DNA of 33,383 bases from a virus. Where the stretch lies: the IMG/VR virus record IMGVR_UViG_3300042344_000972, positions 1 to 33,383 of that record. One strand, given 5' to 3'. Position numbers and translations under genes: made by a program. Under the pieces are notes generated by a model, which ran no database searches, was not told where the DNA came from, and saw nothing but the letters and a program-made list of their open reading frames with translations. This document shows, in pieces, positions 1 through 31,314 of the stretch. Positions within the stretch are counted from its first letter, which is position 1. Each line of letters opens with the position of its first letter.

Positions 1-167
1 CCCGTGGCTTGGAGGATGATCTGCGTTAACCCCTGGATGTCTTTGGACTCCTCCAGTTTGTGCAGGAGTTCCTGAAGCACCGCGATTTCATCATCCGTCA
101 ACTTAGGCGCGGCGCTTCCGACGATGGCAGCACGGAGGTTTTGAGCGATTGCAGCTTGCCGATCCAT
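1..167 (-). CDS. Hypothetical protein, 3' end cut by window edge
   Basis: The minus strand opens with ATG at 167-165 and stays open to base 1 for 55 codons. The product begins MDRQAAIAQNLRAAIV and continues into a predicted helical, charged stretch (KLTDDEIAVLQELLHKLEES). I do not recognise a family. It is the first gene of its own transcription unit: a cassette-A promoter lies at 194-222, and the leader carries the recurring GAGTTGAG block and the CCACCCATG start context. There is no ordinary Shine-Dalgarno sequence at the usual distance. The open frame together with the conserved promoter and leader makes it a probable real gene. Confidence 0.65.
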   Translation of the reverse strand, partial: MDRQAAIAQNLRAAIVGSAAPKLTDDEIAVLQELLHKLEESKDIQGLTQIILQAT

Positions 168-193
168 GGGTGGTTTCTCAACTCGTTAAATCT

Positions 194-222
194 ATTATCT
201 ACGGTATCCCGCAGAATGTCAA
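194..222 (-). promoter_or_regulatory. Cassette-A promoter with embedded operator (copy A1)
   Basis: On the minus strand the -35 box TTGACA (222-217) and the -10 box GATAAT (199-194) are separated by exactly 17 bp. The spacer contains the near-palindrome CTGCGGGATACCGTAG at 214-199. The same arrangement recurs at 2397-2425, 2514-2542 and 3908-3936. A repressor bound here would occlude RNA polymerase. The cognate repressor is not identified. Confidence 0.75.
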
Positions 223-247
223 GGGGTTGAGCAAAATATTTTTGAGA

Positions 248-276
248 ATAAAAAACCGGGCCGTGATGACCCGGTT
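248..276 (-). terminator. Rho-independent terminator of the minus operon
   Basis: The inverted repeat ACCGGG/CCCGGT (255-260 and 270-275) is followed on the minus strand by a run of T (bases 248-255 read as A on plus). It lies just after the stop codon of the gene at 292-609. It is a slightly diverged member of the CCGGGCC terminator family seen throughout the window. Confidence 0.75.
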
Positions 277-291
277 GGGGATGGCTTGGGG

Positions 292-609
292 TTATTCAGC
301 GGGGACGTTTTTGATTAGCCAGTCGTAAACGTCATCAAAGCTTTCGGAAACAAACCCGTTTGGCGCGGGGGCGAGTGTTTCGTTGGCCGGTGAATCCACT
401 GATTGGCGCTGGTAGGTGATCACTTTCCATTGGCGATCAATCAACATACAGTCAACTACCCGCCCGTCAGGAGCCGACAGGAAGATGCGAGCATTGTCAT
501 GGCACTCCAGCTCCCAATTGGGATAGGTATCTTGCAGAACAGTAAGGATGCTGTGAATTGCGTCGTCTTGATTGCTGGCGCGAGAAGTCGGGCGGGATGG
601 GTCGTACAT
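292..609 (-). CDS. Small hypothetical protein, last gene of minus operon
   Basis: 105 residues starting MYDPSRPTSRASNQDD. It has no recognised family, signal peptide or membrane segment. The layout DTYPNWELE in the first half and DDVYDWLIKN near the C terminus matches the pattern of the gene at 1201-1485 (LYPNLDW, ALDWLGW) and the gene at 1482-1760 (RFPRLTW, ALDWLDG). These three probably form a diverged paralogous family with an aromatic core. The gene lies 22 nt downstream of the 632-928 gene, with a weak ribosome site, and is followed directly by a terminator. Confidence 0.6.
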   Translation of the reverse strand: MYDPSRPTSRASNQDDAIHSILTVLQDTYPNWELECHDNARIFLSAPDGRVVDCMLIDRQWKVITYQRQSVDSPANETLAPAPNGFVSESFDDVYDWLIKNVPAE

Positions 610-631
610 AGTGGCTTCTAGTCCTCAAAAC

Positions 632-928
632 TCAAGAATCTGGCAGGATGTTGACGAATTGAATGGTCAACTTTTTCCGTCGGTATACCCCGATCATCCC
701 CATTCCCATGAGCTGGTCTGGCGAGAGGCTTTCGCCCCGTGGCTCACCCAAAAAATACTCGTAGGTAGAGTCGTAGCGATTTGCGGACGTGGCATACACG
801 TTCGTGAACCACTCGAAGCCAGTGGGAGCGCCAGGTGCGGCGTAGTCTGGACGAATGCCTTTGTACTTTTTGGCGATTTCAATCGCGCTCGGTTTGTCTC
901 CGGGTGACAAAAAACTATCGCTGATCAT
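632..928 (-). CDS. Small hypothetical protein
   Basis: 98 residues starting MISDSFLSPGDKPSAIEIAKKYKGIRPDY. It is rich in Tyr and Gly in the middle (NRYDSTYEYFLGEPRGE). I recognise no family. The start is well supported by a strong ribosome site, AGGAGAT, 5 nt before the ATG. It sits 9 nt after the 938-1192 gene in the same minus operon. Confidence 0.65.
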   Translation of the reverse strand: MISDSFLSPGDKPSAIEIAKKYKGIRPDYAAPGAPTGFEWFTNVYATSANRYDSTYEYFLGEPRGESLSPDQLMGMGMIGVYRRKKLTIQFVNILPDS

Positions 929-937
929 GGTTATCTC

Positions 938-1192
938 CTAAAACCATCGGGTTCGCTTCACTTCAACGGTCACGGCTTCGATCTCATAGTCTGCATTGTC
1001 GAGGTCAAAGCCATCCAGCCCGCTAGCGTCCAGCTCTTCCTTCACCCATTCGACTTTCTCTTCATAGGTCGGACGGCGCTTGGTTATCGAAGAGAAGCTG
1101 CCCTCGATTTCCTCCTCGCCATCATCAGCGGTGTACAGCACGGCAGTTTCATAGGCCGTCTCGGTCTTGGGCAGTCTGAATAATCCAAACAT
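938..1192 (-). CDS. Small acidic MFG-type hypothetical protein
   Basis: 84 residues starting MFGLFRLPKTETAYET. It is acidic (Asp/Glu clusters DDGEEEIEG and DNADYEIEAVTVE) and ends KRTRWF. Its first residues resemble those of three plus-strand genes at 2826, 3214 and 3510, which start MFGWF, MFGSA and MFGLF. The leader reads ATCGAGTTGAG, then a short purine-rich stretch, then the ATG. No function can be assigned. Small acidic phage proteins are often host-takeover or anti-defence factors, but nothing here shows that. Confidence 0.65.
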   Translation of the reverse strand: MFGLFRLPKTETAYETAVLYTADDGEEEIEGSFSSITKRRPTYEEKVEWVKEELDASGLDGFDLDNADYEIEAVTVEVKRTRWF

Positions 1193-1200
1193 GGCTCACC

Positions 1201-1485
1201 TCAACTCGATTTGTTTGGGCCCATCGCCCCTTGATACCACCCAAGCCAATCCAGAGCATCGGCCAGATCGAAAAACTGAGGGCGCTGGCAACCCAGCACG
1301 TACAGATCAACGCGGCCGGCGTGGAACCCAGCGTTTTCACCCCAGGCGACTAGGGCAAAAACAGGCGTGTCGTGATCGCAATAAGTCGCGTATCCCGTCA
1401 GCTCAACATGGTTTGAAGCGGTTTGCTGTTGCCAATCGAGGTTGGGATAGAGATCGCGCAGTTTGGCTAAGAGTTGATCGGTCAT
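1201..1485 (-). CDS. Small hypothetical protein, paralogue of its neighbour
   Basis: 94 residues starting MTDQLLAKLRDLYPNLDWQQ. The N-terminal LYPNLDW and the C-terminal DLADALDWLGWYQG resemble the gene immediately upstream (RFPRLTW, SLQSALDWLDGFQ), which suggests tandem duplication and divergence. It starts with an ATGA overlap with the stop codon of the 1482-1760 gene, so translation is probably coupled. Function unknown. Confidence 0.65.
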   Translation of the reverse strand: MTDQLLAKLRDLYPNLDWQQQTASNHVELTGYATYCDHDTPVFALVAWGENAGFHAGRVDLYVLGCQRPQFFDLADALDWLGWYQGAMGPNKSS

Positions 1486-1760
1486 GGTTTTGGGTTCCGA
1501 GACAGCAGGGTTTGAAATCCATCAAGCCAGTCGAGTGCGGATTGTAGAGAGCGGAATGAGATAACCGACCCAAACCTAAACAGGTCAACATCGACAGACT
1601 GATCGCCCTTGACCTTGACTCGCAACATGACGGATGCATTGCAGTCGAGTATTGCGGCGGCTCCAATGCAAACACTGGCTCCATCGTCGCGAGGCTCACT
1701 AACCCACGTCAGGCGAGGAAAGCGGCGCTCCAATTCGTTGCGGATTTCATCGTGTTCCAT
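1482..1760 (-). CDS. Small hypothetical protein, paralogue of its neighbour
   Basis: I chose the ATG at 1760 (product MEHDEIRNELERRFPRLTW, 92 residues) because AAGGA lies 7 nt upstream. An in-frame ATG at 1793 would add 11 residues and would overlap the previous gene by 11 nt. The pattern of a short helix, an aromatic turn, a beta-rich middle (ASVMLRVKVKGDQSVDVDLFRFG) and a C-terminal ALDWLDG helix is shared with the 1201-1485 product. Its stop overlaps the next start by 4 nt. Function unknown. Confidence 0.6.
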   Translation of the reverse strand: MEHDEIRNELERRFPRLTWVSEPRDDGASVCIGAAAILDCNASVMLRVKVKGDQSVDVDLFRFGSVISFRSLQSALDWLDGFQTLLSRNPKP

Positions 1761-1782
1761 GATTTTGTCCTTTTGGGTGGGA

Positions 1783-2112
1783 TTACTGGCCATTTAGCCA
1801 GCGCTTAACGGCCGCATAGTCTTTGACGCTCGCAATCTTTCCGCAACAGAATCCGGGGCAATTCAGCCAGAAACGATGATGGATAAGGTCACATAACCGA
1901 ATCACGGTTTCTGCATGGTCTTTTTCCTTGACCACGAAAGCGAAGATGGGGCGAGCGTCACCCTTTGGGCTATTGGGTTGGCGCACCGGCTCGATCTGCC
2001 AAGTCTCGGACTGTTCACCTCCCAAGACGACCTGGGCCCGCTCAAGTAATGCGTCACCTTCGGTTTCAGGGTCGAATCGTTCACCGCGCGAGGTAGTGAC
2101 TTGAATTTTCAT
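1783..2112 (-). CDS. Small hypothetical protein
   Basis: 109 residues from the ATG at 2112 (MKIQVTTSRGERFDPETEG). An upstream in-frame TTG lies inside the GAGTTGAG leader block and is unlikely to be the start. The leader is ATCGAGTTGAGAATCTCC followed by ATG. The protein has a Cys pair (CPGFCCGK) and ends KRWLNGQ. I recognise no family. It is the second gene of the minus operon, 62 nt after the 2175-2357 gene. A small CCCC-GAAA-GGGG hairpin lies in the gap (2153-2164). Confidence 0.6.
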   Translation of the reverse strand: MKIQVTTSRGERFDPETEGDALLERAQVVLGGEQSETWQIEPVRQPNSPKGDARPIFAFVVKEKDHAETVIRLCDLIHHRFWLNCPGFCCGKIASVKDYAAVKRWLNGQ

Positions 2113-2174
2113 GGAGATTCTCAACTCGATTGGATTGGGTGAATCAGAGCGGCCCCTTTCGGGGACAGGTCGGT

Positions 2175-2357
2175 TTACTTCAGGCGGTATTCATTCAAGA
2201 AAGCGAGGTTCCCAATCGCAAATGCTCGCCCTTGGACTTTCACCTCGCCCCGCGTCGCGTCGGTCTTGGTGTACTTGGTGACCGTCACTTCTTCCCCGGT
2301 CTTGCGGTTGACGTAAATTTGACCGGCGGTGATGTTGTGGATGTTGTTGTAAGTCAT
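2175..2357 (-). CDS. Small basic hypothetical protein, first gene of minus operon
   Basis: 60 residues starting MTYNNIHNITAGQIYVNRKTG. Its beta-rich pattern (GQIYVNRKTGEEVTVTKYTKT, then GEVKVQGRAFAIGNLAFLNEYR) suggests a small barrel of the SH3 or OB type, seen by eye only. It is driven by cassette-A promoter A2 and carries a leader hairpin (GGAGC/GCTCC arms) just before CCCACCCAAG-ATG. The first codons and leader closely match those of the divergent gene at 2582, which starts MTYQQ. Confidence 0.7.
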   Translation of the reverse strand: MTYNNIHNITAGQIYVNRKTGEEVTVTKYTKTDATRGEVKVQGRAFAIGNLAFLNEYRLK

Positions 2358-2396
2358 CTTGGGTGGGAGCGGCTTGCTCCTGAACTCGATACATCT

Positions 2397-2425
2397 ATTA
2401 TCTGCGGTATCCCACAGAATGTCAA
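2397..2425 (-). promoter_or_regulatory. Cassette-A promoter (copy A2) for the leftward operon
   Basis: On the minus strand TTGACA (2425-2420), a 17-bp spacer and GATAAT (2402-2397). The spacer carries the near-palindrome CTGTGGGATACCGCAG. It faces away from copy A3 at 2514. The seven genes from 2357 down to 292 follow without another visible promoter. Confidence 0.8.
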
Positions 2426-2431
2426 CCCAGG

Positions 2432-2448
2432 AATCAATATTATTGATT
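2432..2448. repeat. Perfect 17-nt palindrome in the divergent control region
   Basis: AATCAATA, a central T, then TATTGATT form a perfect odd palindrome. It sits in the AT-rich gap of about 90 bp between the two outward-facing cassette-A promoters. It could bind a dimeric regulator or a bending protein. Confidence 0.6.
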
Positions 2449-2513
2449 ATCGTTTACAGGTAATCCCGCCTCAATCGATAAGCGATGATGATCAATTTAT
2501 TCCATCAAACCCC

Positions 2514-2542
2514 TTGACAATCTACGGCATACCAGTGATAAT
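2514..2542 (+). promoter_or_regulatory. Cassette-A promoter (copy A3) for the rightward operon
   Basis: TTGACA (2514-2519), a 17-bp spacer and GATAAT (2537-2542). The spacer has the left operator half CTACGG and a weaker right half. It is followed by ATCGAGTTGAG and a perfect GGAGCG/CGCTCC leader hairpin (2558-2572) before the ATG at 2582. Confidence 0.8.
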
Positions 2543-2581
2543 AGATTCATCGAGTTGAGGAGCGCAACGCTCCCACCCAAA

Positions 2582-2764
2582 ATGACCTACCAACAAAAGC
2601 ACCAAGCTCGCTACGAACAAGCCACCGCCGCTGGAAACCGCACGGTCGCGCTAGACGCGGTGTGGCGGGCCGCGAGTGCCGAAAACCTGATTAACGAGAC
2701 TCGGGAACGGGAATTGACGGAAGCCCGCGCCGCTGAAATCAAGATCCAGCTCGGTTGGAAGTAG
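2582..2764 (+). CDS. Small hypothetical protein, first gene of plus operon
   Basis: 60 residues starting MTYQQKHQARYEQATAAGN, almost wholly helical with alternating charges (LINETRERELTEARAAEIKIQLGWK). I chose the ATG at 2582 because it sits right after the conserved leader block CCCACCCAAA. The open frame could extend upstream to 2555, but that would run through the leader hairpin. No family recognised. It heads the rightward unit with the genes at 2826, 3214 and 3510. Confidence 0.7.
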   Translation: MTYQQKHQARYEQATAAGNRTVALDAVWRAASAENLINETRERELTEARAAEIKIQLGWK

Positions 2765-2780
2765 ACCCACCCGCCTCAAG

Positions 2781-2833
2781 TAAACCCTAGCCACCCCGCC
2801 CCGTGCGGGGTTTGGAGATTTCAAAATGTTTGG
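2781..2833 (+). repeat. 53-bp hairpin-and-start module, copy 1
   Basis: Nearly identical to 3169-3221. It contains TAAACCCTA, a hairpin with CCCCGC/GCGGGG arms (2794-2799 and 2805-2810), TTTGGAGATTTCAAA and the start ATGTTTGG of the next gene. The stem is conserved between the copies while the 5-nt loop differs (CCCGT here). Confidence 0.85.
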
Positions 2834-3155
2834 ATGGTTCAAAACAGAGAAAGAAGAAGTAGAGCCTTCCACGGGGCATAAGGTGCGATCCGGCGCTGTC
2901 GATAGTGCCCGCTACCCCGCGATTGATTTTGCTATGCAGGTCACGGATGCAAAGGGTGGATCCAAGACCACGATCCTTCAAACCAAAGACGGCAGCATGG
3001 CCACGGTTCGGGACATCCCAGGGGCTGGGCGGGTTGTTTCGCTTGATTTGACCCGAGAGGACGGGATCCACACGCCCCTTGCGGCCAGCCAGAAATCCAA
3101 GGATCGCCAGGACGTGATCGATCAATGCCGCGATTTTGATCGCCGTCTCGACTAA
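2826..3155 (+). CDS. MFG-type hypothetical protein
   Basis: 109 residues starting MFGWFKTEKEEVEPST. A charged N terminus is followed by a beta-rich part (SKTTILQTKDGSMATVRDIPGAGRVVSLDLTREDGI) and a short C-terminal helix (SKDRQDVIDQCRDFDRRLD). The end of the protein resembles the end of the 3510-3833 product (KELRDEAIDRLHQARKWW), so the two may be distant paralogues. The ribosome site GGAG is 11 nt before the ATG and follows a stable hairpin. Function unknown. Confidence 0.65.
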   Translation: MFGWFKTEKEEVEPSTGHKVRSGAVDSARYPAIDFAMQVTDAKGGSKTTILQTKDGSMATVRDIPGAGRVVSLDLTREDGIHTPLAASQKSKDRQDVIDQCRDFDRRLD

Positions 3156-3168
3156 ACCCACCACCCTA

Positions 3169-3221
3169 TAAACCCTAACCACCCCGCGTTATGCGGGGTT
3201 TGGAGATTTCAAAATGTTTGG
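3169..3221 (+). repeat. 53-bp hairpin-and-start module, copy 2
   Basis: Second copy of the module at 2781-2833. The hairpin arms CCCCGC (3182-3187) and GCGGGG (3193-3198) are unchanged and the loop is GTTAT. It again supplies the ribosome site and the first codons of the following gene. Confidence 0.85.
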
Positions 3222-3444
3222 CTCCGCAAAACCCCCTGAAAAACTGACCCCAGCAGAATTACGACAGCGCCTCGTTGCCAAGCACCCCGCGCCAATTTCG
3301 CGCCTTGAAGCCCTGGAGATCGCGCACGCCTACCTTGAGGCATCCGATCAACCGGAAGACCTCAAGGCGGCTGATGTTGTCAATGAAATGATCGGCGAAA
3401 TAATTGCTGCTGACTCGCCAACCTCAACCCATCGCCCCGGTTAG
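3214..3444 (+). CDS. Small helical MFG-type hypothetical protein
   Basis: 76 residues starting MFGSAKPPEKLTPAELRQRLVAKHP. It is predicted all-helical (SRLEALEIAHAYLEASDQPEDLKAADVVNEMIGEIIA) with a Pro-rich end. I recognise no family. Only the first three residues match the neighbouring MFG proteins, which suggests that the start module, not the protein, was duplicated. The TAG stop lies in the loop of a GCCCCGG/CCGGGGC hairpin (3434-3452). Confidence 0.65.
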   Translation: MFGSAKPPEKLTPAELRQRLVAKHPAPISRLEALEIAHAYLEASDQPEDLKAADVVNEMIGEIIAADSPTSTHRPG

Positions 3445-3481
3445 TCCGGGGCTTTCCCAGACCGGGCCGTGATGGCCCGGT
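3434..3481 (+). terminator. Tandem hairpins between genes (weak terminator or attenuator)
   Basis: The first hairpin has GCCCCGG (3434-3440) and CCGGGGC (3446-3452) arms and carries the upstream stop codon in its loop. The second has ACCGGGCC (3461-3468) and GGCCCGGT (3474-3481) arms. Neither is followed by a good T-run, so partial termination or 3'-end protection within the operon is more likely than full termination. Confidence 0.5.
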
Positions 3482-3509
3482 CAAAAGTCAACAAGTCGAG
3501 AGGATTACC

Positions 3510-3833
3510 ATGTTTGGTTTATTTGGATCGCGCAAAACAGACCCGGATGAAGATGTTTACAGCTCTGAGCTGCCTTTTCTAGCGGATCGCGATGGGAAGT
3601 GGGATGAATTAGCCCATGCGCTTTCCGGGTCATGTCGCGTTTCTGACGATTCGCGCCAAGCTCCTTTACCAGACGGAGCGCGGGGCATGGTTTACCGCGA
3701 TGGGCGGGTTGCTGCTGACTGGACGCGGGCCGATGGCACGTACTCGAAATATGCGAGCAAGGAAGCGAAAGAGTTGCGAGATGAAGCCATCGACCGATTG
3801 CACCAAGCCCGTAAGTGGTGGTTTGGTTGCTGA
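3510..3833 (+). CDS. MFG-type hypothetical protein
   Basis: 107 residues starting MFGLFGSRKTDPDEDVYSSELPF. The middle reads as a small beta sheet (GARGMVYRDGRVAADWTRADGTYSKY), followed by a helix (SKEAKELRDEAIDRLHQARKWWFGC). The arrangement resembles the 2826-3155 product. The ribosome site AGAGGAT lies 5-6 nt upstream of ATG. It is the last gene of the rightward cassette-A operon and is closed by the terminator at 3854-3881. Function unknown. Confidence 0.65.
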   Translation: MFGLFGSRKTDPDEDVYSSELPFLADRDGKWDELAHALSGSCRVSDDSRQAPLPDGARGMVYRDGRVAADWTRADGTYSKYASKEAKELRDEAIDRLHQARKWWFGC

Positions 3834-3853
3834 TTCTTGAGCTTTCCCTTCCC

Positions 3854-3881
3854 AAACCGGGCCGTGATGGCCCGGTTTTTT
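3854..3881 (+). terminator. Rho-independent terminator (CCGGGCC family)
   Basis: Arms AAACCGGGCC (3854-3863) and GGCCCGGTTT (3869-3878) with loop GTGAT and a T-run to 3881. It ends the 2582-3833 operon. Confidence 0.9.
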
Positions 3882-3907
3882 ATTCTCAAAAATATCTCGC
3901 TAACCCC

Positions 3908-3936
3908 TTGACATTCCACGGCATACCGCAGATAAT
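3908..3936 (+). promoter_or_regulatory. Cassette-A promoter (copy A4)
   Basis: TTGACA (3908-3913), a 17-bp spacer and GATAAT (3931-3936). The spacer includes CCACGGCATACCGCAG, the same operator core as the other copies. The GAGTTGAGG leader block follows, then the ATG at 3968. Confidence 0.8.
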
Positions 3937-3967
3937 GGTATGCATAAAGCGAGTTGAGGAACAACAA

Positions 3968-4198
3968 ATGCTGACCCCAGAACAAAAGACCGTCGCTGCT
4001 GAGTCTGGTGCAAAGTGGTACGTCGCACCCCCTGAAGGCCCTACTACGCTCCTCCGTTACGAAGTCAATCGCGGGCAAGTCCAGTGGGAAGGGCGCACCG
4101 TCGCCGCCGATGGAACCTTGTTAGGCGATGGATGGGAGTCGTTGATTGACCCCGACGAGCTGGCTCGCAACGAGTCCGAACAGCGGCGACGGATTTAA
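3968..4198 (+). CDS. Small hypothetical protein
   Basis: 76 residues starting MLTPEQKTVAAESGAKWYVAPPEG. It has a beta-rich centre (TLLRYEVNRGQVQWEGRTVAADG) and a charged C terminus (DPDELARNESEQRRRI). The start at 3968 follows the GAGTTGAGGAACAACAA leader; an upstream extension of the frame would overlap promoter A4. It is a single-gene unit between promoter A4 and the terminator at 4221-4246. I recognise no family. Confidence 0.65.
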   Translation: MLTPEQKTVAAESGAKWYVAPPEGPTTLLRYEVNRGQVQWEGRTVAADGTLLGDGWESLIDPDELARNESEQRRRI

Positions 4199-4220
4199 GT
4201 TAAACCCCACATCCCCCAGG

Positions 4221-4246
4221 CCGGGCCATCACGGCCCGGTTTTTTT
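4221..4246 (+). terminator. Terminator (CCGGGCC family) shared by convergent genes
   Basis: Arms CCGGGCC (4221-4227) and GGCCCGG (4233-4239), loop ATCAC, and a seven-T run on plus. It ends the 3968-4198 gene. The convergent minus gene reads into it, and its TGA stop is formed inside the hairpin. Confidence 0.85.
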
Positions 4247-6710: not shown

Positions 6711-6737
6711 CCCCCCCCAATCGAGTTGAGACCCGCT

Positions 6738-7076: not shown

Positions 7077-7110
7077 GTTTCCGCCCCATCCCAAAAAATC
7101 GAGTTGAGCC

Positions 7111-7488
7111 ATGTACGTCCCAAATCCCACCCAACAATCCCCATCAGTGGTCAACTACAAGACCACGATCCAGTCCCCTGCAACCGAAGCGGCCCCGCGT
7201 ACTCTTGACTTGGTGAGCGAACGCGGTCTACTGGATCGCCTGTTGCCAAAGTCGAAAACCGACCTGATAGCCCGGGCCCTCGGAACCGTTTTGGCTGGCC
7301 TGTTTTTTGGCTCGATCCTGAAGGTATTGCCTTTGGGTGTCGTTCCCTTGTCGATTGCGCTGGTGGCCATCGCCATCGGAGCGGCCACGATCTGGGGTGC
7401 TGCGATCTACTCGCCTCAGTCCCGCCCGATCCTGTCGGCAGCGGTGATGTTGTTCGTGATCGGCTTCATTCTGACGGGAGTGGCGTAA
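7111..7488 (+). CDS. Small multi-span membrane protein
   Basis: 125 residues starting MYVPNPTQQSPSVVNYKTT, with the leader ATCGAGTTGAGCC directly before the ATG. Three hydrophobic segments can be read: ALGTVLAGLFFGSILKVL, VVPLSIALVAIAIGAATIW and ILSAAVMLFVIGFILTGVA. It ends 1 nt before the FtsK-like ATPase and is likely co-translated with it. A membrane partner of that ATPase is the simplest reading; no family is recognised. Confidence 0.65.
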   Translation: MYVPNPTQQSPSVVNYKTTIQSPATEAAPRTLDLVSERGLLDRLLPKSKTDLIARALGTVLAGLFFGSILKVLPLGVVPLSIALVAIAIGAATIWGAAIYSPQSRPILSAAVMLFVIGFILTGVA

Positions 7489-11935: not shown

Positions 11936-11966
11936 AAAAAACCGGGCCATCACGGCCCGGTTTTTT
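11936..11966. terminator. Bidirectional terminator between convergent genes
   Basis: Arms ACCGGGCC (11941-11948) and GGCCCGGT (11954-11961), loop ATCAC, with an A-run before and a T-run after. It separates the nuclease-fold gene from the convergent repressor gene. Confidence 0.85.
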
Positions 11967-12246
11967 AATCCGTCAATCGTTGCCATAGCCCAAGCGGCGT
12001 GTACCCTAGCGCGTTGGCTATCGCCTCCAGGGTCGTAAAAGGGACACTCTGGGCCTCACCCTCTTCGATCTTTTTCAGGTTCGAGGCGGAAACCACGCCT
12101 TTGGTCAATTCAGATAGTCGCGTCCGACTAATCGACCAGCCGTTCCGGGTTCGGAGCTGTTGCAATCGTTGGCCGCGTTCGGGTGACCAACGGAACGCGG
12201 CCACCTCAGTCAGGGGAATGTCCACAATCTGTCCAACAATCATCAT
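11965..12246 (-). CDS. XRE-family transcriptional regulator (repressor candidate 1)
   Basis: 93 residues starting MMIVGQIVDIPLTEVAAF. Residues about 26-80 form a lambda-repressor-like helix-turn-helix: RLQQLRTRNGWSISRTRLSELT, then SASNLKKIEEGEAQSVPFTTLEAIANALGY. It is divergent from the early genes at 12397 onwards, with two inverted site-B elements between them. Its own -10 (minus strand TAATAT, 12328-12323) lies next to one of these sites, so autoregulation is likely. It is the best candidate for the site-B binding protein. Confidence 0.8.
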   Translation of the reverse strand: MMIVGQIVDIPLTEVAAFRWSPERGQRLQQLRTRNGWSISRTRLSELTKGVVSASNLKKIEEGEAQSVPFTTLEAIANALGYTPLGLWQRLTD

Positions 12247-12322: not shown

Positions 12323-12370
12323 ATATTAGCACTTTCAGTAGCTTGACTTTGACACTCAGAGTGTTAATAT
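12323..12370. promoter_or_regulatory. Divergent promoters with inverted site-B operators
   Basis: Rightward: TTGACT (12343-12348), a 16-bp spacer and TAATAT (12365-12370), with the perfect palindrome ACACTCAGAGTGT (12352-12364) filling the spacer. Leftward: TAATAT on minus (12328-12323) flanked by an imperfect copy; ATATTAGCACTTTCAG (12323-12338) matches the complement of the right arm at 13 of 16 positions. This is the layout of a phage immunity-type switch. Confidence 0.75.
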
Positions 12371-12396
12371 GGATGCATCGAGTTCAGAGCCACCCA

Positions 12397-12783
12397 ATGC
12401 AAGCCGCCGTATTCAATCCCGTCCTGGAGCAATGGTATCCCGCTGACTGCCCCGAATCTTTTGATTGGCAAACCGAGATCGAGGAGATCGATCAAGAGAT
12501 TGAAGCGGTTGAAAGCGACCTGGGCAATAACGGTTGCGCTCAAGTCGCGGCCGAAAAACTCAAGAAACTGCAATCCCGGTTCGATGATTTTCTCTCGGAC
12601 TATGGGCACGAAATCAGCCGGACTCACGCTGACCTCACCCAATCCGCTATCAGCTCGCTCCTAAATTTCATCGAAATTACCGACACGATTATCGATGACC
12701 ATGGGCGTTCCCAAGTCGTCGTCATCGGCTACCACAACCCCAATTTGGATGACGTGACTGTTGACGGTGACGACGAATTTTAG
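12397..12783 (+). CDS. Early hypothetical protein with coiled-coil segment
   Basis: 128 residues from the ATG at 12397 (MQAAVFNPVLEQWYPADCPES). This start follows the promoter, the GAGTTCAGAG leader and the CCACCCA context; the longer frame from 12343 would begin inside the promoter. Residues about 25-85 are helical and charged (WQTEIEEIDQEIEAVESDLG, then VAAEKLKKLQSRFDDFLSDYG), likely a coiled coil. The C terminus is acidic. First gene under rightward site-B control. I do not recognise the family. Confidence 0.65.
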   Translation: MQAAVFNPVLEQWYPADCPESFDWQTEIEEIDQEIEAVESDLGNNGCAQVAAEKLKKLQSRFDDFLSDYGHEISRTHADLTQSAISSLLNFIEITDTIIDDHGRSQVVVIGYHNPNLDDVTVDGDDEF

Positions 12784-13412: not shown

Positions 13413-13440
13413 TTGACTTTGACACTCAGAGTGCTAAAAT
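13413..13440 (+). promoter_or_regulatory. Site-B controlled promoter (copy 2)
   Basis: TTGACT (13413-13418), a 16-bp spacer and TAAAAT (13435-13440). The spacer holds ACACTCAGAGTGC (13422-13434). About 26 nt around it are identical to the promoter at 12343. It drives the 13479 gene. Confidence 0.8.
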
Positions 13441-13478: not shown

Positions 13479-14120
13479 ATGTTGACCGGAGCCATTAACC
13501 CTGTTGTCGATTCGATGTTTTTGCCGGACTCGGGGCCATTTTCCTTGCGTTTTAATTGTCAGGTTGGGCAATTGGCGCTTGACCAAAAAACCTACATCGC
13601 CAATGCTGGTGAGTTTGTTGTTTTGCACTCGGATAACTGGCGTGGCGCTTTGGGTAAAACCGAGGATGCCATCTGGACTCGGGTGATTTTTGTGCCGACC
13701 CCTCAATTCGCTGAGAAGACTGATGGCGAAGTTCCCGCTAACACCATCTGCCAAGCATTTATCAAGTCTGAATCGCGCGATGCGTTCGGCAAAGCATCGG
13801 TGATCGCGATGCAAAAGCATCAGGTTGGGCTGGCTCAGTTGGTTTGCGGCTTCAAGTCAGAGGGGCGTAGCTCGGATGGTAAAAACTACTTTGCCTTTGG
13901 GTTCGAGTTTCGCGAACCGACCAAAGATGAAGCGAAGTTCATGGGGATGGTGCTTGAATTTGCCAAGGGAGCATCGGCGGCAATGATCGCAAGTCACAAC
14001 GCTGGGTTGATTTGCATTGATGGCAAAACACCCGAAGAGATTGAGCGATTGTTCCCCGCCCCGGTCTCATCCCTTGCTGCTGAAAATCGAGTGGCATTGC
14101 CCGCGCTGGCCGCTGCCTAG
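13479..14120 (+). CDS. Early protein, candidate single-strand DNA-binding or annealing protein
   Basis: 213 residues starting MLTGAINPVVDSMFLPDSGPF. It is beta-rich in the first half (PFSLRFNCQVGQLALDQKTY, then GEFVVLHSDNW) and helical at the end (DEAKFMGMVLEFAKGASAAM). I do not recognise a defined family by sequence. The next gene is a RecB-like exonuclease, and phage recombination modules usually pair such a nuclease with an annealing or SSB-type protein, so that role is inferred. It has its own site-B promoter, a GGAG ribosome site and a terminator behind it (14145-14167). Confidence 0.5.
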   Translation: MLTGAINPVVDSMFLPDSGPFSLRFNCQVGQLALDQKTYIANAGEFVVLHSDNWRGALGKTEDAIWTRVIFVPTPQFAEKTDGEVPANTICQAFIKSESRDAFGKASVIAMQKHQVGLAQLVCGFKSEGRSSDGKNYFAFGFEFREPTKDEAKFMGMVLEFAKGASAAMIASHNAGLICIDGKTPEEIERLFPAPVSSLAAENRVALPALAAA

Positions 14121-14984: not shown

Positions 14985-15203
14985 ATGGACAATTTGGACG
15001 CGATCAAAGCCTTGGAAGATGCGCGGGACGCACTGAATTGGTTGGGTGAAAATTACCCCAACATGGTTCCAGTACCTTGCATTGGGTTAGAAGAAATCCT
15101 GAATGCTTCAGTGTTCCTGGAATCGTTTTTAGCGGCAATTGGACAGGAAGGAATTAACGCGAGAGGTGAATTATGGGTGAAGCAAAACGACGGAAGCAAC
15201 TAG
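14985..15203 (+). CDS. Small hypothetical protein
   Basis: 72 residues from the ATG at 14985 (MDNLDAIKALEDARDALNWLG), with TTGGAG upstream. The helix-turn pattern (ALEDARDALNWLGENYP, then GLEEILNASVFLESFLAAIG) suggests a small helical protein. It overlaps the next gene by 31 nt, and that overlap carries the repeated start module. Function unknown. Confidence 0.6.
   Translation: MDNLDAIKALEDARDALNWLGENYPNMVPVPCIGLEEILNASVFLESFLAAIGQEGINARGELWVKQNDGSN
15148..15177 (+). repeat. 30-bp exact direct repeat, copy 1 (start module)
   Basis: Starts AAGGAATTAACGCGAGAGG and ends at ATGGG. It provides the AGAGGTGA ribosome site and the first codons of the 15173 gene. It is identical to 15664-15693. Confidence 0.9.
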
Positions 15204-15663: not shown

Positions 15664-15693
15664 AAGGAATTAACGCGAGAGGTGAATTATGGG
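15664..15693 (+). repeat. 30-bp exact direct repeat, copy 2 (start module)
   Basis: Identical to 15148-15177, 516 bp downstream, and again provides the ribosome site and the start codon of the following gene. Confidence 0.9.
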
Positions 15694-18464: not shown

Positions 18465-18679
18465 GGCGGTTTGATCGAAGTCGTGACGGGTTCGGGTTCG
18501 GGCAAGGTCGGGATGATCAGGACTAGCCCCGGCGGAAGCAATGGCGATGGGCGCGGGGTGAATAACCCAGGATTGGCCCTGAGCAGCACTTGCACTCTTG
18601 CCACCGTCCCATAAGCAGCAAAGGAGATCGAGTCGAGCCGATCACCCTGCTTTGTTCGGTAGGTTCTATAGCTGGTCAT
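18455..18679 (-). CDS. Tail protein X, LysM-like
   Basis: 74 residues starting MTSYRTYRTKQGDRLDSIS. The motif TKQGDRLDSISFAAYGTVARVQVLLRANPG is the compact LysM fold of phage P2-type protein X, which contacts the baseplate hub. The Pro-rich end (LPPGLVLIIPTLPEPEP) also matches family members. It precedes the hub gene with a 10-nt overlap, the usual gene order. Confidence 0.8.
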   Translation of the reverse strand: MTSYRTYRTKQGDRLDSISFAAYGTVARVQVLLRANPGLFTPRPSPLLPPGLVLIIPTLPEPEPVTTSIKPPWL

Positions 18680-18900
18680 GTCTTCAGCCTACAAGACCCA
18701 CCCAATAAGCGTAGGTTAACCACGGGATGGGCATGGCGGCATCGGGTGGCTATGTAACAGCCAAAACCCTTACTGTATAAGGGTTTCAAAATCGATACCC
18801 CTCGAAAAATGCCGTTTGTAATTCTCATGTACCGAATCGTACCTTGTGTCAGGTAGGTTGCTAACAGCCAGGACTCCCACCCATCAAGGATTTCAGCCAT
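18676..18900 (-). CDS. Doubtful small ORF upstream of tail protein X
   Basis: 74 residues starting MAEILDGWESWLLATYLTQ. Its stop overlaps the next ATG (ATGA), which supports coupling. The C-terminal half (YIATRCRHAHPVVNLRLLGG) has an unusual Cys/His/Arg content. It spans a perfect 9-bp inverted repeat (AAACCCTTA/TAAGGGTTT, 18770-18792). It may be a real small protein or a leader with structure. No family recognised. Confidence 0.3.
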   Translation of the reverse strand: MAEILDGWESWLLATYLTQGTIRYMRITNGIFRGVSILKPLYSKGFGCYIATRCRHAHPVVNLRLLGGSCRLKT

Positions 18901-19335
18901 TTTTATTTTTGAAGCAACATTGTAATCATTTATTTTTATCTAGAACGAATTAGAGATAGATAAAAATATGGCCTCAAGTCGAGTGTCTTTTTATACCTTG
19001 GGTGAGTCCAGAATTTAGAGACTCTCAAAAACTTGGGGGCTTATTTTTGGGGACTGGTGACACAAGCCGAAACGCATATAGGGCAAGGGATAGCGACGTT
19101 GCGCAAAAATGCAACAGGCTTTTATCTCATGAGTTGATGACATAGCATGGGGGCTTGAGGGGTTTAGGTTGGCTCTATTGGGTGGGTTCTGGGGATGGTT
19201 TGGGGCTTGGGATGCCCTCCATATTCCGGAGGTCATCTGGTACATCGACTGTCACACCACGCCATCCTCTTTCGTTAACCTACCCACCCACTCCCAACCG
19301 GGACATGCTGGTGATGTTCGCTCCCTATTCGCACC
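18901..19335. other. Non-coding control region between tail gene blocks
   Basis: About 435 bp with no convincing gene. It holds a perfect 12-bp inverted repeat (TATTTTTATCTA 18931-18942 and TAGATAAAAATA 18957-18968), a GAGTC/GACTC repeat (19004-19024) and a GTTGC/GCAAC hairpin. AT-rich DNA at 18900-19010 lies upstream of the leftward tail genes and could hold their promoter. The rest is GT-rich and shows nothing clear. Confidence 0.55.
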
Positions 19336-20007: not shown

Positions 20008-20361
20008 CTACTCAGGGCGGGTAATTTCGTGGACTAATCGGCGCAAATCATCCAATGGCAGTGATCGAGCTTGGCTAACCAGTGAATTAAATTGATTGGC
20101 CCTGGCTTTTCGTAGCTCTTCGATCTCAATTTCGCCATCAAGATACGAGTCTATCAAGTCCACAGGTAACTCCAGAGCAGCCGCAAAACTCAGGGCCCAA
20201 TTACCCGTAAACGGTGTTCTCCCTTCCTTGAGCGCCCAAAGAGAGGGACGGGACACCCTCACAGCCGTTGCCGCTTCTACCTGAGTTCCAAAGACCTCGA
20301 TCAAATATTCGACCAACCGAGTAGCCCGCCGCTTTCGATCCTCTGATGGTTTTTCTGCCAT
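20008..20361 (-). CDS. XRE-family transcriptional regulator (repressor candidate 2)
   Basis: 117 residues from the ATG at 20361 (MAEKPSEDRKRRATRLVEYLI), with AGGGG upstream; the TTG at 20376 is a less likely start. Helix-turn-helix residues FGTQVEAATAVRVSRPSLWALKEGRTPF (about 24-51), with the rest of the domain following. The C-terminal helices (DLIDSYLDGEIEIEELRKAR, then DDLRRLVHEI) may serve for dimerisation. It is divergent from the replication genes, and two TAGGnnnCCTA operators lie between them. It probably represses replication and lytic growth. Confidence 0.75.
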   Translation of the reverse strand: MAEKPSEDRKRRATRLVEYLIEVFGTQVEAATAVRVSRPSLWALKEGRTPFTGNWALSFAAALELPVDLIDSYLDGEIEIEELRKARANQFNSLVSQARSLPLDDLRRLVHEITRPE

Positions 20362-20392
20362 GCCGACCCCTGACAAATTTTAAAAAAAAAAA

Positions 20393-20432
20393 CTGTAGGC
20401 AACCTATCAAATCTGTGCTAGGATACCTACAG
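20393..20432. promoter_or_regulatory. Paired site-C operators over the replication promoter
   Basis: Two 11-bp palindromes, TAGGCAACCTA (20396-20406) and TAGGATACCTA (20419-20429), lie within a larger inverted repeat (CTGTAGG 20393-20399, CCTACAG 20426-20432). An extended -10 (TGCTAGGAT, 20416-20424) coincides with the second palindrome, and the first covers the -35 position (TAGGCA). Bound repressor would block the rightward promoter. Confidence 0.7.
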
Positions 20433-20459
20433 ACCAATTAGACAGCTCCATTTTAACGT

Positions 20460-20750
20460 ATGGCCGCCACAATCCGTGCAATGGCGCACCGAGTCCCCCG
20501 ACTCGCGAGCGCCCTAAGTGAAGACGCAAAGCGCAAGTCCAAGGCATGGTCTGCGATCAACGGATACTCCCTGAGAGAGGGGATCGCACAAATCATGGAG
20601 GATTGCGCGACTGCTAACGGGATCCCCACGGGCTATCCCTGTGAGGATCGATTTGCCGCCGCTGCCTGCCTGAAGCGAATGAAGTCGATTGACCTGCTTG
20701 AGCAGGCGATCGATCAAGCTTTTGCTCACCAATTCAGCCAAGCGGCCTAG
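20460..20750 (+). CDS. Small early protein
   Basis: 96 residues starting MAATIRAMAHRVPRLASAL. It is predicted helical and basic in the first third (SEDAKRKSKAWSAINGYSLR), with a Cys-containing middle. No family recognised. It is the first gene under the site-C promoter, with a 5' leader of about 30 nt and no ribosome site. Position between the repressor and the replication protein is typical for a regulatory partner such as a Cro-type or replication-accessory protein, which is inference. Confidence 0.55.
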   Translation: MAATIRAMAHRVPRLASALSEDAKRKSKAWSAINGYSLREGIAQIMEDCATANGIPTGYPCEDRFAAAACLKRMKSIDLLEQAIDQAFAHQFSQAA

Positions 20751-23921: not shown

Positions 23922-23972
23922 TTGACGATTAACACTTTGGGTGTCAAACTTGGGATAGCGAGAGTGGCAAAT
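23922..23972 (+). promoter_or_regulatory. Site-B-like operator before the methylase gene
   Basis: ACACTTTGGGTGT (23932-23944) is the reverse complement of a close copy of the site-B core (11 of 13 positions). The extended match covers 19 of 21 positions on the minus strand. TTGACG (23922-23927) could be a -35 box, but no good -10 was found. Confidence 0.5.
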
Positions 23973-29224: not shown

Positions 29225-30728
29225 CGCACTCTCACCCAAAGACCGATTGCTCTTGGCCAAGAATGCTCAAAAGTTGGGCATCGGAACCACGCGGGATTGG
29301 TCAGGATGTGACCCGGTGGAATTCTTTCGGGATGCCCTTGGGGTTGAACTGACCTCAGACCAACGGGCTATTGTCGAGTCGGTGCTGTCCAAACCCGTCA
29401 CCCTGGTTCCCTCATCCCACGGACAAGGGAAGACTTGGGTTGCCGCGATGGTGTTGCTGTGGGGTGTGTTCTGCTGGCGCGGGCTGGTGATTTCCACGGC
29501 CCCAACGGCCCGTCAGATGAAGGAACTGCTGTGGCGGTACGTGCGACAGTCATGGGACAAGAATCGTGCCCAGTTGGGTGGTGAGCGGGGACAGACTTTT
29601 TTGAGACTGGATGAAATTGCCCAAGCCTATGGGTTTTCATCCCGCGATACCAGCGATACCAACTTCCAGGGCATCCACGCCGATCGCTTGTTGATCATTG
29701 CCGATGAAGCTTGCGGGATTAGCCCGGACGTGTGGACTGGGATGGTGAGCTGCTTGACCGATCTCGACAACAACCGGCTGTTGGCCATCGGCAACCCCAC
29801 TCGTACCCAAACGCCCTTCGCTGATGCCTGTGGCAAAAATCCCGACGCGGTGATCCGGCTGGGGGCTTGGCAGCATCCGAACGTTGCACCCTACTACCGG
29901 CTCGAACCCGATGGCGTGCATCGGCTCAAACCGGGATTGAGTGACGATCCGACCGCTCTGGCTAAGTTGCCGCGCGTCATCCCTGGTGCAATTACTCCGG
30001 CCTGGATTGAGGCGCGGCGGTCTGAGTGGGGCGAAAATTCACCACGATGGCAATCGCGGATCGAGGCTGTGTTCCCTGTGGACTCTGAGCATTCAGTGAT
30101 TCCGATTCAACTTTTGAGGGCAGCGCGGGCGCGGTTCGATGCCATCCCGTTCAAGCCGGCACGCTACGGTCTGGACGTTGGGGATGGTGGTGATGATTCA
30201 GCCATGGCCGAATGGCGTGGGCTGGTGCTGACCCGGGTGGGTGTGTTGCCAGGGCAAGGCGATTGGGAGGATGTGTTGCGGGCGGCTCAGTGGCTAAGGG
30301 GGCTGATCGAAAAGGGTTCAACTGTGGCCGTTGACCGTTCAGGTGTTGGGGCTGGTGCGCTTGGGGACTTGCGGCGAAATGGTGTGGCCGCGGCTCCCTT
30401 TGATTGGGGCGGCGCTGCAAAAGACCCCACCCAATATGCCAATGCCAAAGCAGAACAGTTTTGGAGTCTGCGGATTGCCCTAGAGAAGGGAGAGGTTGCC
30501 ATTGCTCCGTTGGGGACTCTTGAGGATCGGGCATTTGAGGAATTGAGCAGCATCTACTGGCGACTCACCCCAAACGATAAGATCCAGATCGAGCCAAAGG
30601 AGCAGACGATCAAACGGCTAGGGCGATCACCAGATCTCGCTGACGCGATTGTGGGTGGGTTCAACGCGCCGCGTGAATCGGCGAAAATCGTCAGCCCTTA
30701 CCGGGGGCGTTCGTTTGTGGGCTTTTAG
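29211..30728 (+). CDS. terL: Terminase large subunit
   Basis: 505 residues from the TTG at 29211, chosen because GGAG lies 10 nt upstream; another TTG at 29184 would add 9 residues. No ATG serves the N terminus. Walker A PSSHGQGKT is at about 67-75 and Walker B RLLIIADEA at about 159-167. The nuclease part has Asp residues in YGLDVGDGGDDSAMAEW, then STVAVDRSGVGAGALG, then LADAIVGGF, the RuvC-like layout of packaging terminases. It powers DNA entry into the capsid and cuts the concatemer. Confidence 0.9.
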   Translation: MPAVSALSPKDRLLLAKNAQKLGIGTTRDWSGCDPVEFFRDALGVELTSDQRAIVESVLSKPVTLVPSSHGQGKTWVAAMVLLWGVFCWRGLVISTAPTARQMKELLWRYVRQSWDKNRAQLGGERGQTFLRLDEIAQAYGFSSRDTSDTNFQGIHADRLLIIADEACGISPDVWTGMVSCLTDLDNNRLLAIGNPTRTQTPFADACGKNPDAVIRLGAWQHPNVAPYYRLEPDGVHRLKPGLSDDPTALAKLPRVIPGAITPAWIEARRSEWGENSPRWQSRIEAVFPVDSEHSVIPIQLLRAARARFDAIPFKPARYGLDVGDGGDDSAMAEWRGLVLTRVGVLPGQGDWEDVLRAAQWLRGLIEKGSTVAVDRSGVGAGALGDLRRNGVAAAPFDWGGAAKDPTQYANAKAEQFWSLRIALEKGEVAIAPLGTLEDRAFEELSSIYWRLTPNDKIQIEPKEQTIKRLGRSPDLADAIVGGFNAPRESAKIVSPYRGRSFVGF

Positions 30729-30731
30729 GCA

Positions 30732-31037
30732 ATGAAACTAAACAACCAACTGATTAATGTTGCGATCAACTTGCGAGGGGTGGGCTATCGCGTTCGGGTC
30801 AAGCCACCCTCTCCTGGTTTTCCGATAGGGCAGCTTGAGGTATGGGACAGGGTTCCAGCAGCGATCACGATCAATGGCAGTAGCGGAGTTGCACCCTATG
30901 CAACCGTCAATCGGTGGGTTTGGGCAAGGTGTGCGATTTGGCGAGATGAGCTTGGATGGGGGGCTAGCACCCACGAATTGCTAAAGCATCGCCCAATGAG
31001 CGATGCCCCGCTTTTGCCGGAGCGGATTCCGGGCTGA
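30732..31037 (+). CDS. Small hypothetical protein of the head operon
   Basis: 101 residues starting MKLNNQLINVAINLRGVGYRV. It is beta-rich (GQLEVWDRVPAAITINGSSG, then VNRWVWARCAIWRDELGW). It lies 3 nt after the terminase stop. No family recognised. Beyond it a structured gap of about 280 bp separates it from the portal. Confidence 0.55.
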   Translation: MKLNNQLINVAINLRGVGYRVRVKPPSPGFPIGQLEVWDRVPAAITINGSSGVAPYATVNRWVWARCAIWRDELGWGASTHELLKHRPMSDAPLLPERIPG

Positions 31038-31314
31038 ATGGCGTGGGGTATTGACTACGGGGATCTGCGTAGTCAACTTTGGTATCACGTGTTTTTTGTT
31101 GCCCCGTAAAGGTTTCAGGAGTTTTCCACAAGCCAAATCGGGATTTTGGTATCACGTGAATTCCTAGGTACTCAGAAATGAGTACCTAGAGGCAAAACCC
31201 TTGTGCCGTGCGGGTTCTGATTTTTCCGCAGAAATGCGGAAAAATACCCGAGCCATGTTAACCGCCCTCGATCCTCACCCAACGGCATGATGGCAACAGA
31301 GTCTAGCCCCTGCC
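31038..31314. other. Hairpin-rich intergenic region before the portal gene
   Basis: No gene is visible. It holds a 9-bp inverted repeat (TTGACTACG 31051-31059, CGTAGTCAA 31068-31076), an exact 14-nt direct repeat TTTGGTATCACGTG (31078-31091 and 31145-31158), and two perfect hairpins with 11-bp arms and GAAA loops (31164-31189 and 31220-31245). The second hairpin is also enclosed by CGGGT/ACCCG (31211-31215, 31246-31250). It may be a structured RNA, a packaging or processing site, or a regulator binding region. Confidence 0.7.

What the first reader, a model, noticed from the sequence alone, without database searches (positions are those of the whole stretch)
190..3960. Four-copy promoter-operator-leader cassette controlling a small-gene island
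Copies at 194-222, 2397-2425, 2514-2542 and 3908-3936 share TTGACA, a 17-bp spacer and GATAAT. The spacer holds the near-palindrome CTGCGGGATACCGTAG or a close variant. Each copy is followed by the GAGTTGAG leader block. The promoters drive unrelated small unknown genes, so the cassette has been copied as a unit. This points to a phage regulon with a common repressor that is not yet identified, and whose members could include host-takeover or anti-defence genes.
Basis: partly seen in the sequence, partly recalled or inferred. Interest (0 to 1): 0.75.

Follow-up and report, generated by a model that had tools for sequence, protein, structure and literature searches.

The report
Cyanophage repeated promoter-operator cassette
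This cyanobacterial virus uses one repeated stretch of control DNA, a promoter with a probable repressor site built in, to run several groups of small unknown genes; related viruses keep the same switch at the same genes but carry a different repressor site in it, as if the lock had been changed on all copies at once.

Summary
Observation confirmed: four TTGACA-N17-GATAAT copies at the stated coordinates, none expected by chance. They drive four transcription units (about 13 small genes), most ending at a shared-sequence terminator. The leader element CGAGTT[G/C]AG follows each copy; it also precedes genes without a promoter, so it belongs to translation starts. The repeated unit is larger than stated: terminator, A+T-rich spacer, promoter-operator and leader, about 100-120 bp.

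Relatives give the key evidence. A complementary fragment (G001, probably the same phage) holds two more copies of this operator type (A). Two related prophages (G003, G004) hold twelve cassettes with the same -35, 17-bp spacer and a near-identical leader at most sites, but another spacer motif (type B, TTCCGATGCATACAGGA). Orthologous genes carry the A motif in A and the B motif in B. One promoter-plus-gene unit is present in G003 and absent in G004, with both breakpoints inside cassette repeats.

Best reading: dispersed operators of a phage-encoded, type-specific repressor, on a cassette that also serves as a seam for gene gain and loss. The repressor is not identified. Dyad symmetry is weak in A and absent in B. 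Anti-defence function is untested. Closest known analogue: SAS/ESAS of cluster K mycobacteriophages; no homology shown.

The parts
194..222 (-). promoter-operator copy 1: TTGACA-TTCTGCGGGATACCGTA-GATAAT, drives the gene at 1-167(-)
   Evidence: ortholog of its gene in G003 34533 and G004 2485 has the type-B cassette
177..185 (-). start-associated leader CGAGTTGAG of copy 1, ATG at 167
1..167 (-). small gene (at least 55 aa, cut by window edge), MDRQAAIAQNLRAAIVG...
   Evidence: 72-76% identical to G003 34533-34730 and G004 2485-2682
254..276 (-). intrinsic terminator closing the 2397 unit; part of the repeated block upstream of copy 1
   Evidence: block 170-284 repeated at 3847-3965
2397..2425 (-). 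promoter-operator copy 2: TTGACA-TTCTGTGGGATACCGCA-GATAAT, divergent from copy 3
   Evidence: divergent pair also in G003 33983(-)/34053(+) and G004 2360(-)/2430(+)
2380..2388 (-). leader CGAGTTCAG of copy 2, followed by a predicted hairpin before ATG 2357
292..2357 (-). operon of seven small genes under copy 2: 2175-2357, 1783-2112, 1482-1793 (or from 1760), 1201-1485, 938-1192, 632-928, 292-609
   Evidence: 1201-1485 and 1482-1793 are paralogues; no convincing Pfam, NCBIfam or PADLOC family among those tested
2514..2542 (+). promoter-operator copy 3: TTGACA-ATCTACGGCATACCAGT-GATAAT
2551..2559 (+). leader CGAGTTGAG of copy 3, followed by hairpin GGAGCG-CAA-CGCUCC before ATG 2582
   Evidence: z -2.5
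2582..3833 (+). four small genes under copy 3: 2582-2764, 2826-3155, 3214-3444, 3510-3833
3854..3878 (+). intrinsic terminator closing the copy 3 unit, start of the repeated block ending in copy 4
3908..3936 (+). promoter-operator copy 4: TTGACA-TTCCACGGCATACCGCA-GATAAT
3950..3958 (+). leader CGAGTTGAG of copy 4, ATG at 3968
3968..4198 (+). single small gene (76 aa) under copy 4
   Evidence: no relative found in the three relatives
4219..4245 (+). intrinsic terminator after the copy 4 gene
1200..1208 (-). leader element without promoter, before gene 938-1192
2120..2128 (-). leader element without promoter, before gene 1783-2112
6722..6730 (+). leader element without promoter, before the ORF of 112 aa starting at about 6738
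7100..7108 (+). leader element without promoter, before gene 7111-7488
12343..12387 (+). second operator class: TTGACT-N16-TAATAT over dyad TTGACACTC/GAGTGTTAA, with leader CGAGTTCAG; orthologous promoters in G003 44652 and G004 12435 carry the type-B operator
13413..13440 (+). second copy of the second operator class, upstream of gene 13479-14120
11965..12246 (-). XRE1, HTH regulator divergent from the second-class promoter; probable autoregulated repressor of that class
20008..20376 (-). XRE2, lambda-repressor-like HTH protein, conserved in G003 and G004; one unproven candidate for the cassette's regulator

Best explanation
A repeated regulatory cassette of a temperate cyanobacterial phage. 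Shown: each copy is a consensus sigma-70 promoter whose 17-bp spacer holds a motif shared by all copies of the same phage type, followed by a leader element that marks translation starts and, at several copies, preceded by the terminator of the upstream unit. Inferred: the spacer motif is the operator of one phage-encoded DNA-binding protein that blocks RNA polymerase between -35 and -10, so the small genes are silent in the lysogen (or shut off after an early burst) and expressed together on infection or induction. Between phage types A (window, G001) and B (G003, G004) the promoter frame and gene positions persist while the operator sequence has changed at all copies, as expected when the regulator's specificity changes. 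The near-identical cassettes also serve as sites of homologous recombination, so whole promoter-gene units are gained and lost between them; this is seen for one unit in G003 versus G004. The regulator is not identified. XRE2, the small putative RHH protein next to the G001/G003 island, the KilA-N and BRO proteins remain candidates.
For: 29-bp copies far beyond chance. Six type-A sites and twelve type-B sites, all with TTGACA, exactly 17 bp and a -10-like hexamer; leader at most. Spacers are more alike within a type than between types (0.71 and 0.76 against 0.53, label permutation p 0.0003; sites are not independent). Orthologous promoters differ in operator: MDRQ gene (G000 1-167, G003 34533, G004 2485) and SWIM-like gene (G001 16256, G003 27792). 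Type-B sites at G003 27394 and 27131 lack the leader and have unrelated upstream DNA yet keep TTGACATTCCGATG, which argues for selection on the promoter-operator and not mere recent copying. PWM scans find no further sites. No match to the type-A pattern in any cyanobacterium among 84,980 species genomes (three context-free matches in other MAGs), so it does not look like a host regulon. Unit gain or loss with breakpoints inside the 49-bp cassette.
Against: No regulator, binding or transcription data. Type B shows no dyad symmetry (permutation p 0.95) and type A only weakly (p 0.045). No cassette operator lies at a candidate regulator gene in type A; in type B one lies 118 bp from XRE1, which has another operator-like repeat beside it. 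G000 and G001 are complementary fragments and may be one phage, so the independent phage sets are two, not three or four. An activator or an early-expression timing element is not excluded.
Confidence: 0.7

Rival explanations
1. No operator: the copies are alike only because a strong promoter with its terminator and leader was recently duplicated within each genome, and the spacer has not had time to diverge.
For: Copies 1 and 4 share about 120 bp including the terminator at 80%; unit gain and loss at the cassette is seen.
Against: Type-B sites with unrelated upstream DNA and no leader keep the same -35 and left half spacer; conservation inside the spacer is uneven, left half and core high, right end low, in both types; orthologous promoters keep their place across A and B while spacers differ by type.
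Confidence: 0.15
2. The operator is bound by a host transcription factor, so the phage genes answer to host physiology.
For: Promoters are of the host sigma-70 type; no phage regulator has been tied to the motif.
Against: A scan of 84,980 species genomes found the type-A 29-bp pattern in no cyanobacterium; types A and B differ in operator although both phages appear to share an attachment target, judged by eye.
Confidence: 0.1
3. The bound protein is an early activator or a timing factor, not a lysogenic repressor (early-gene promoter set as in archaeal viruses, or Aca-type autorepression after a burst).
For: Genes are small, unknown and clustered, as in acr-type early regions (PMC11065993).
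Against: Full consensus -35 and 17-bp spacing need no activator (established promoter knowledge); no anti-defence hits (whose library holds defence systems, so this is weak).
Confidence: 0.2

Closest known systems
SAS/ESAS elements of cluster K mycobacteriophages (PMC3203893; PMC11373665)
   Same: Multi-copy intergenic SigA-like promoters (17-18 bp spacing) with an imperfect inverted repeat, followed by a conserved start-associated sequence; non-structural small genes; the repeat consensus differs between phage subclusters and the authors propose different protein specificities.
   Different: No sequence likeness; different host phylum. Here the motif lies inside the 17-bp spacer, is only weakly dyad in one type and not in the other, and the repeated block includes the upstream terminator.
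SPbeta SPBRE elements and master repressor MrpR (PMC10516654)
   Same: A short motif repeated in about ten promoter regions of mostly unknown phage genes, read by one phage repressor.
   Different: Repressor known there (tyrosine-recombinase fold); unknown here. I saw no leader element or terminator-promoter block in the passages read there.
Phage P1 C1 operators (PMC8546580)
   Same: Many (22) dispersed operators of one repressor; the 17-bp operator is asymmetric, as type B here appears to be.
   Different: C1 regulator is known; in this phage neither regulator nor lysogenic control is shown.
Conserved early promoters of archaeal viruses used to find anti-defence genes (PMC11065993)
   Same: Shared regulatory sequence before small, poorly conserved clustered genes.
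   Different: Archaeal promoter; expression timing is measured there and not here.
Lambdoid morons (from own knowledge)
   Same: Accessory genes bounded by their own promoter and terminator, gained and lost as units.
   Different: Here all units share one promoter-operator sequence, which is also the recombination seam.

Membership tests
SAS/ESAS (cluster K) | 13-bp start-associated sequence GGGATAGGAGCCC before start codons | tested here: not met
   element here is CGAGTT[G/C]AG, 11-32 nt before ATG
SAS/ESAS (cluster K) | a subset of start-associated genes has an upstream promoter with an inverted repeat | tested here: inconclusive
   promoter with shared spacer motif present; dyad weak in A (p 0.045), absent in B (p 0.95)
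Dispersed operators of one phage repressor (P1 C1, SPBRE-MrpR kind) | motif repeated at many phage promoters and not elsewhere in the phage | tested here: met
   6 A sites, 12 B sites, no further PWM sites
Dispersed operators of one phage repressor (P1 C1, SPBRE-MrpR kind) | bound by an identified phage repressor that maintains lysogeny | not testable with these tools
   candidates only: XRE1, XRE2, KilA-N, BRO, putative RHH
Aca-controlled anti-CRISPR locus | HTH gene in the operon, binding an inverted repeat in the shared promoter | tested here: not met
   no HTH family hit among the small genes tested (Pfam, PHROGs); binding not testable
Moron-type transcription units | own promoter and terminator, present or absent as a unit in relatives | tested here: met
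   terminators in the window; unit G003 34053-34477 absent in G004

The most novel reading that the evidence does not exclude
The cassette is a portable control platform of a new cyanophage group: one phage repressor governs a whole accessory, possibly anti-host gene set through near-identical promoter-operators; the operators of all units switch specificity together when a phage changes immunity type; and the same sequences are the recombination seams by which new genes are captured already under control.
Probability: 0.3. Interest if true: 0.7.

Novelty: new member of a known kind. Interest (0 to 1): 0.5.

Why it matters
It gives a sequence handle (TTGACA, type-specific 17-bp spacer, CGAGTT leader) for picking out co-regulated small genes in a cyanophage group with no counterpart found here among 50,697 deposited phage records, at least at the island DNA and the primase. 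It shows in related genomes how a promoter cassette can keep its frame while its operator is replaced, and it turns 'which protein controls these genes' into a simple binding experiment. The small genes under it are a defined short list to test for effects on the host.

Tried and rejected
DNA searches of phage and plasmid collections with the island and with a consensus cassette: nothing but chance hits. Viral-contig scans with tight and relaxed type-A patterns gave G001 only; a free-spacer scan gave G001, G003, G004 and six unrelated contigs whose single matches lack the context. Genome scan: three matches in non-cyanobacterial MAGs without leader context, judged chance. ParM as probe in viral contigs: no relative by the short-peptide method, although G003 and G004 do encode one. 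FtsK alignment as probe: only G003 and G004 again. Class-1 operator at XRE2: the upstream inverted pair has a GGATACC core like the operator, but that pair does not score in the PWM list, and type B has nothing like it; not counted as a link. Fold of the putative RHH protein: too low confidence to use (pLDDT 53). Rfam: no hit. Phylum-wide genome search: not available from a virus record.
Full report
What is in the window. The window is a virus record of 33,383 bases. It encodes an actin-like partition protein, an FtsK-like protein, a tyrosine integrase, a KilA-N protein and two XRE proteins, the terminase large subunit and others. Relatives of its partition protein by tblastn in the plasmid collection are mostly cyanobacterial, so a cyanobacterial host is likely. 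The island DNA has no match in the phage or plasmid collections and the primase-like protein none in the phage collection.

The observation. Four 29-bp copies are present exactly as stated, with 0 expected in shuffles and 0 for the reversed pattern. The unit is larger than a promoter: copy 1 with its upstream terminator (170-284) matches copy 4 with its own (3847-3965) at 80% over 120 columns, and matches G001 at 79% over 101 bp. Predicted terminators stand at 254-276(-), 3854-3878(+) and 4219-4245(+). Reading frames give four units: seven genes under the 2397 copy, four under the 2514 copy, one under the 3908 copy and one cut gene under the 194 copy.

The leader. CGAGTT[G/C]AG follows all four copies, but it also precedes gene starts without the promoter. 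Predicted pairing with the anti-Shine-Dalgarno end is weak to moderate (-2.5 to -7.8 kcal/mol). From the usual 6-8 nt between -10 and start, the transcript would begin at about this element; that is inference. In both copies of the divergent pair the leader also holds a predicted hairpin before the ATG, and so do both leaders of the G003 pair. I read the element as translation-start associated, separate from the operator.

Relatives. Pattern scans gave one more record, G001 (IMGVR_UViG_3300042344_000895), with two type-A cassettes. Its baseplate J protein led to G003 (65,558 bp) and G004 (31,483 bp). Against G003, the window matches about 33-65.5 kb and 0-4.5 kb, and G001 matches 11.8-32.4 kb. 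The window and G001 therefore do not overlap and may be parts of one phage; I count them as one type, A. G003 and G004 are about 83-94% alike over most aligned blocks and form type B.

Operator exchange. G003 and G004 carry twelve cassettes with TTGACA, 17 bp and a -10-like hexamer. Their spacer is TTCCGATGCATACAGGA or close, against TCTACGGCATACCGTA in A. The core GCATAC is shared; the flanks differ. Orthologous genes keep the cassette but with the operator of their own type: the MDRQ gene and the SWIM-like gene. A divergent pair of cassettes is present in all three island regions. The gene at 12398 in the window has instead a second operator class next to XRE1, while its orthologues in G003 and G004 have the type-B cassette, with the -35, -10 and leader recognisably the same. 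The second class (TTGACACTCAGAGTGTTA, 12349 and 13419) lies in the XRE1 intergenic region and before gene 13479; at the corresponding places G003 and G004 carry other repeats. XRE1 is thus the likely reader of the second class, not of the cassette.

Tests of the operator idea. Spacers are more alike within type than between types (the permutation p of 0.0003 ignores relatedness). Conservation is uneven: in B the -35-proximal eight bases are nearly invariant and the distal end varies; in A the pattern is similar. Dyad symmetry is modest in A (0.71 of pairs, p 0.045 after a search over centres and arms) and absent in B (p 0.95). PWM scans find no further sites in the same genomes. These facts fit a specific protein site, possibly read asymmetrically as for P1 C1, and do not prove it.

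Cassette as seam. G003 33694-34100 aligns with G004 2071-2478, and G003 34478-34790 with G004 2430-2742, both at 92%. The two alignments overlap in G004 on 2430-2478, which is the cassette. G003 thus has one extra unit, 34053-34477, a promoter with a 72-aa gene, between two cassette repeats. The direction, gain or loss, is not known.

Regulator. Orthologous DNA-binding candidates between A and B are XRE1 (36-37% identical), XRE2 (43-44%), KilA-N (44-46%), BRO (46%) and a 64-68 aa protein that I suspect, without a confident fold, to be ribbon-helix-helix (44%). XRE2 folds with good confidence as a lambda-repressor-like HTH, with Foldseek E-values of only 0.01 and above. No result ties any of them to the cassette.

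Known kinds. The nearest is the ESAS/SAS system of cluster K mycobacteriophages: repeated SigA-like promoters with an imperfect inverted repeat, a start-associated sequence downstream, and subcluster-specific repeat consensus (PMC3203893; PMC11373665). SPBRE/MrpR, P1 C1 and the archaeal early promoters are further analogues. It works like these; it is not shown to be homologous to any.

Verdict. A real, phage-specific, repeated regulatory cassette with good comparative support for a type-specific operator; regulator, timing and gene functions unknown.

Noticed in passing
12343-12370(+), 13413-13440(+), 23930-23947(-): Second operator class (TTGACACTCAGAGTGTTA and variants) next to XRE1 and before gene 13479; at the corresponding places in G003 and G004 there are different repeats (ACTATTG...ATAGTT type).
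   Followed up: partly
window 18979-19144 and G001 18568-18734; G003 30018-31187 and 53102-53700: A noncoding block is 77% identical between the window (upstream of the gp25-like gene) and G001 (upstream of baseplate J), inverted; G003 has similar repeated AT-rich noncoding DNA in the same two places.
   Followed up: partly
15148-15177 and 15664-15693: Exact 30-nt repeat AAGGAATTAACGCGAGAGGTGAATTATGGG at two gene starts, a second start-associated repeat.
   Followed up: no
20393-20432: Inverted pair CTGTAGGCAACCTATCA / TGCTAGGATACCTACAG upstream of XRE2, followed on the minus strand by a run of T; G003 has another inverted repeat (CTTGCCGTT / AACGGCAAG) at the same place.
   Followed up: partly
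2551-2582(+), 2388-2357(-): Predicted hairpins between leader and ATG in both members of the divergent promoter pair, also in the pair of G003.
   Followed up: partly
about 28.5-28.8 kb, near the integrase; G003 63.1-63.4 kb: A short stretch (GAATA[C/T]TGGGATGGG) is shared by the window beside the integrase and by a host-like coding sequence at the G003 end that looks like an adenylate cyclase by eye; possible attachment core.
   Followed up: no
1201-1485, 1482-1793; G001 20235-20609; G003 33131-33403; G004 1801-2073: A small-protein family (...FP.L.W...ALDWL...) recurs in the island of all four records.
   Followed up: partly
254-276, 3462-3480, 3857-3875, 4221-4239, 9938, 10818, 11942: One terminator sequence (CCGGGCCGTGATGGCCCGG type) recurs at many intergenic places of the window and three of G001, and rarely in G003 and G004.
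   Followed up: partly
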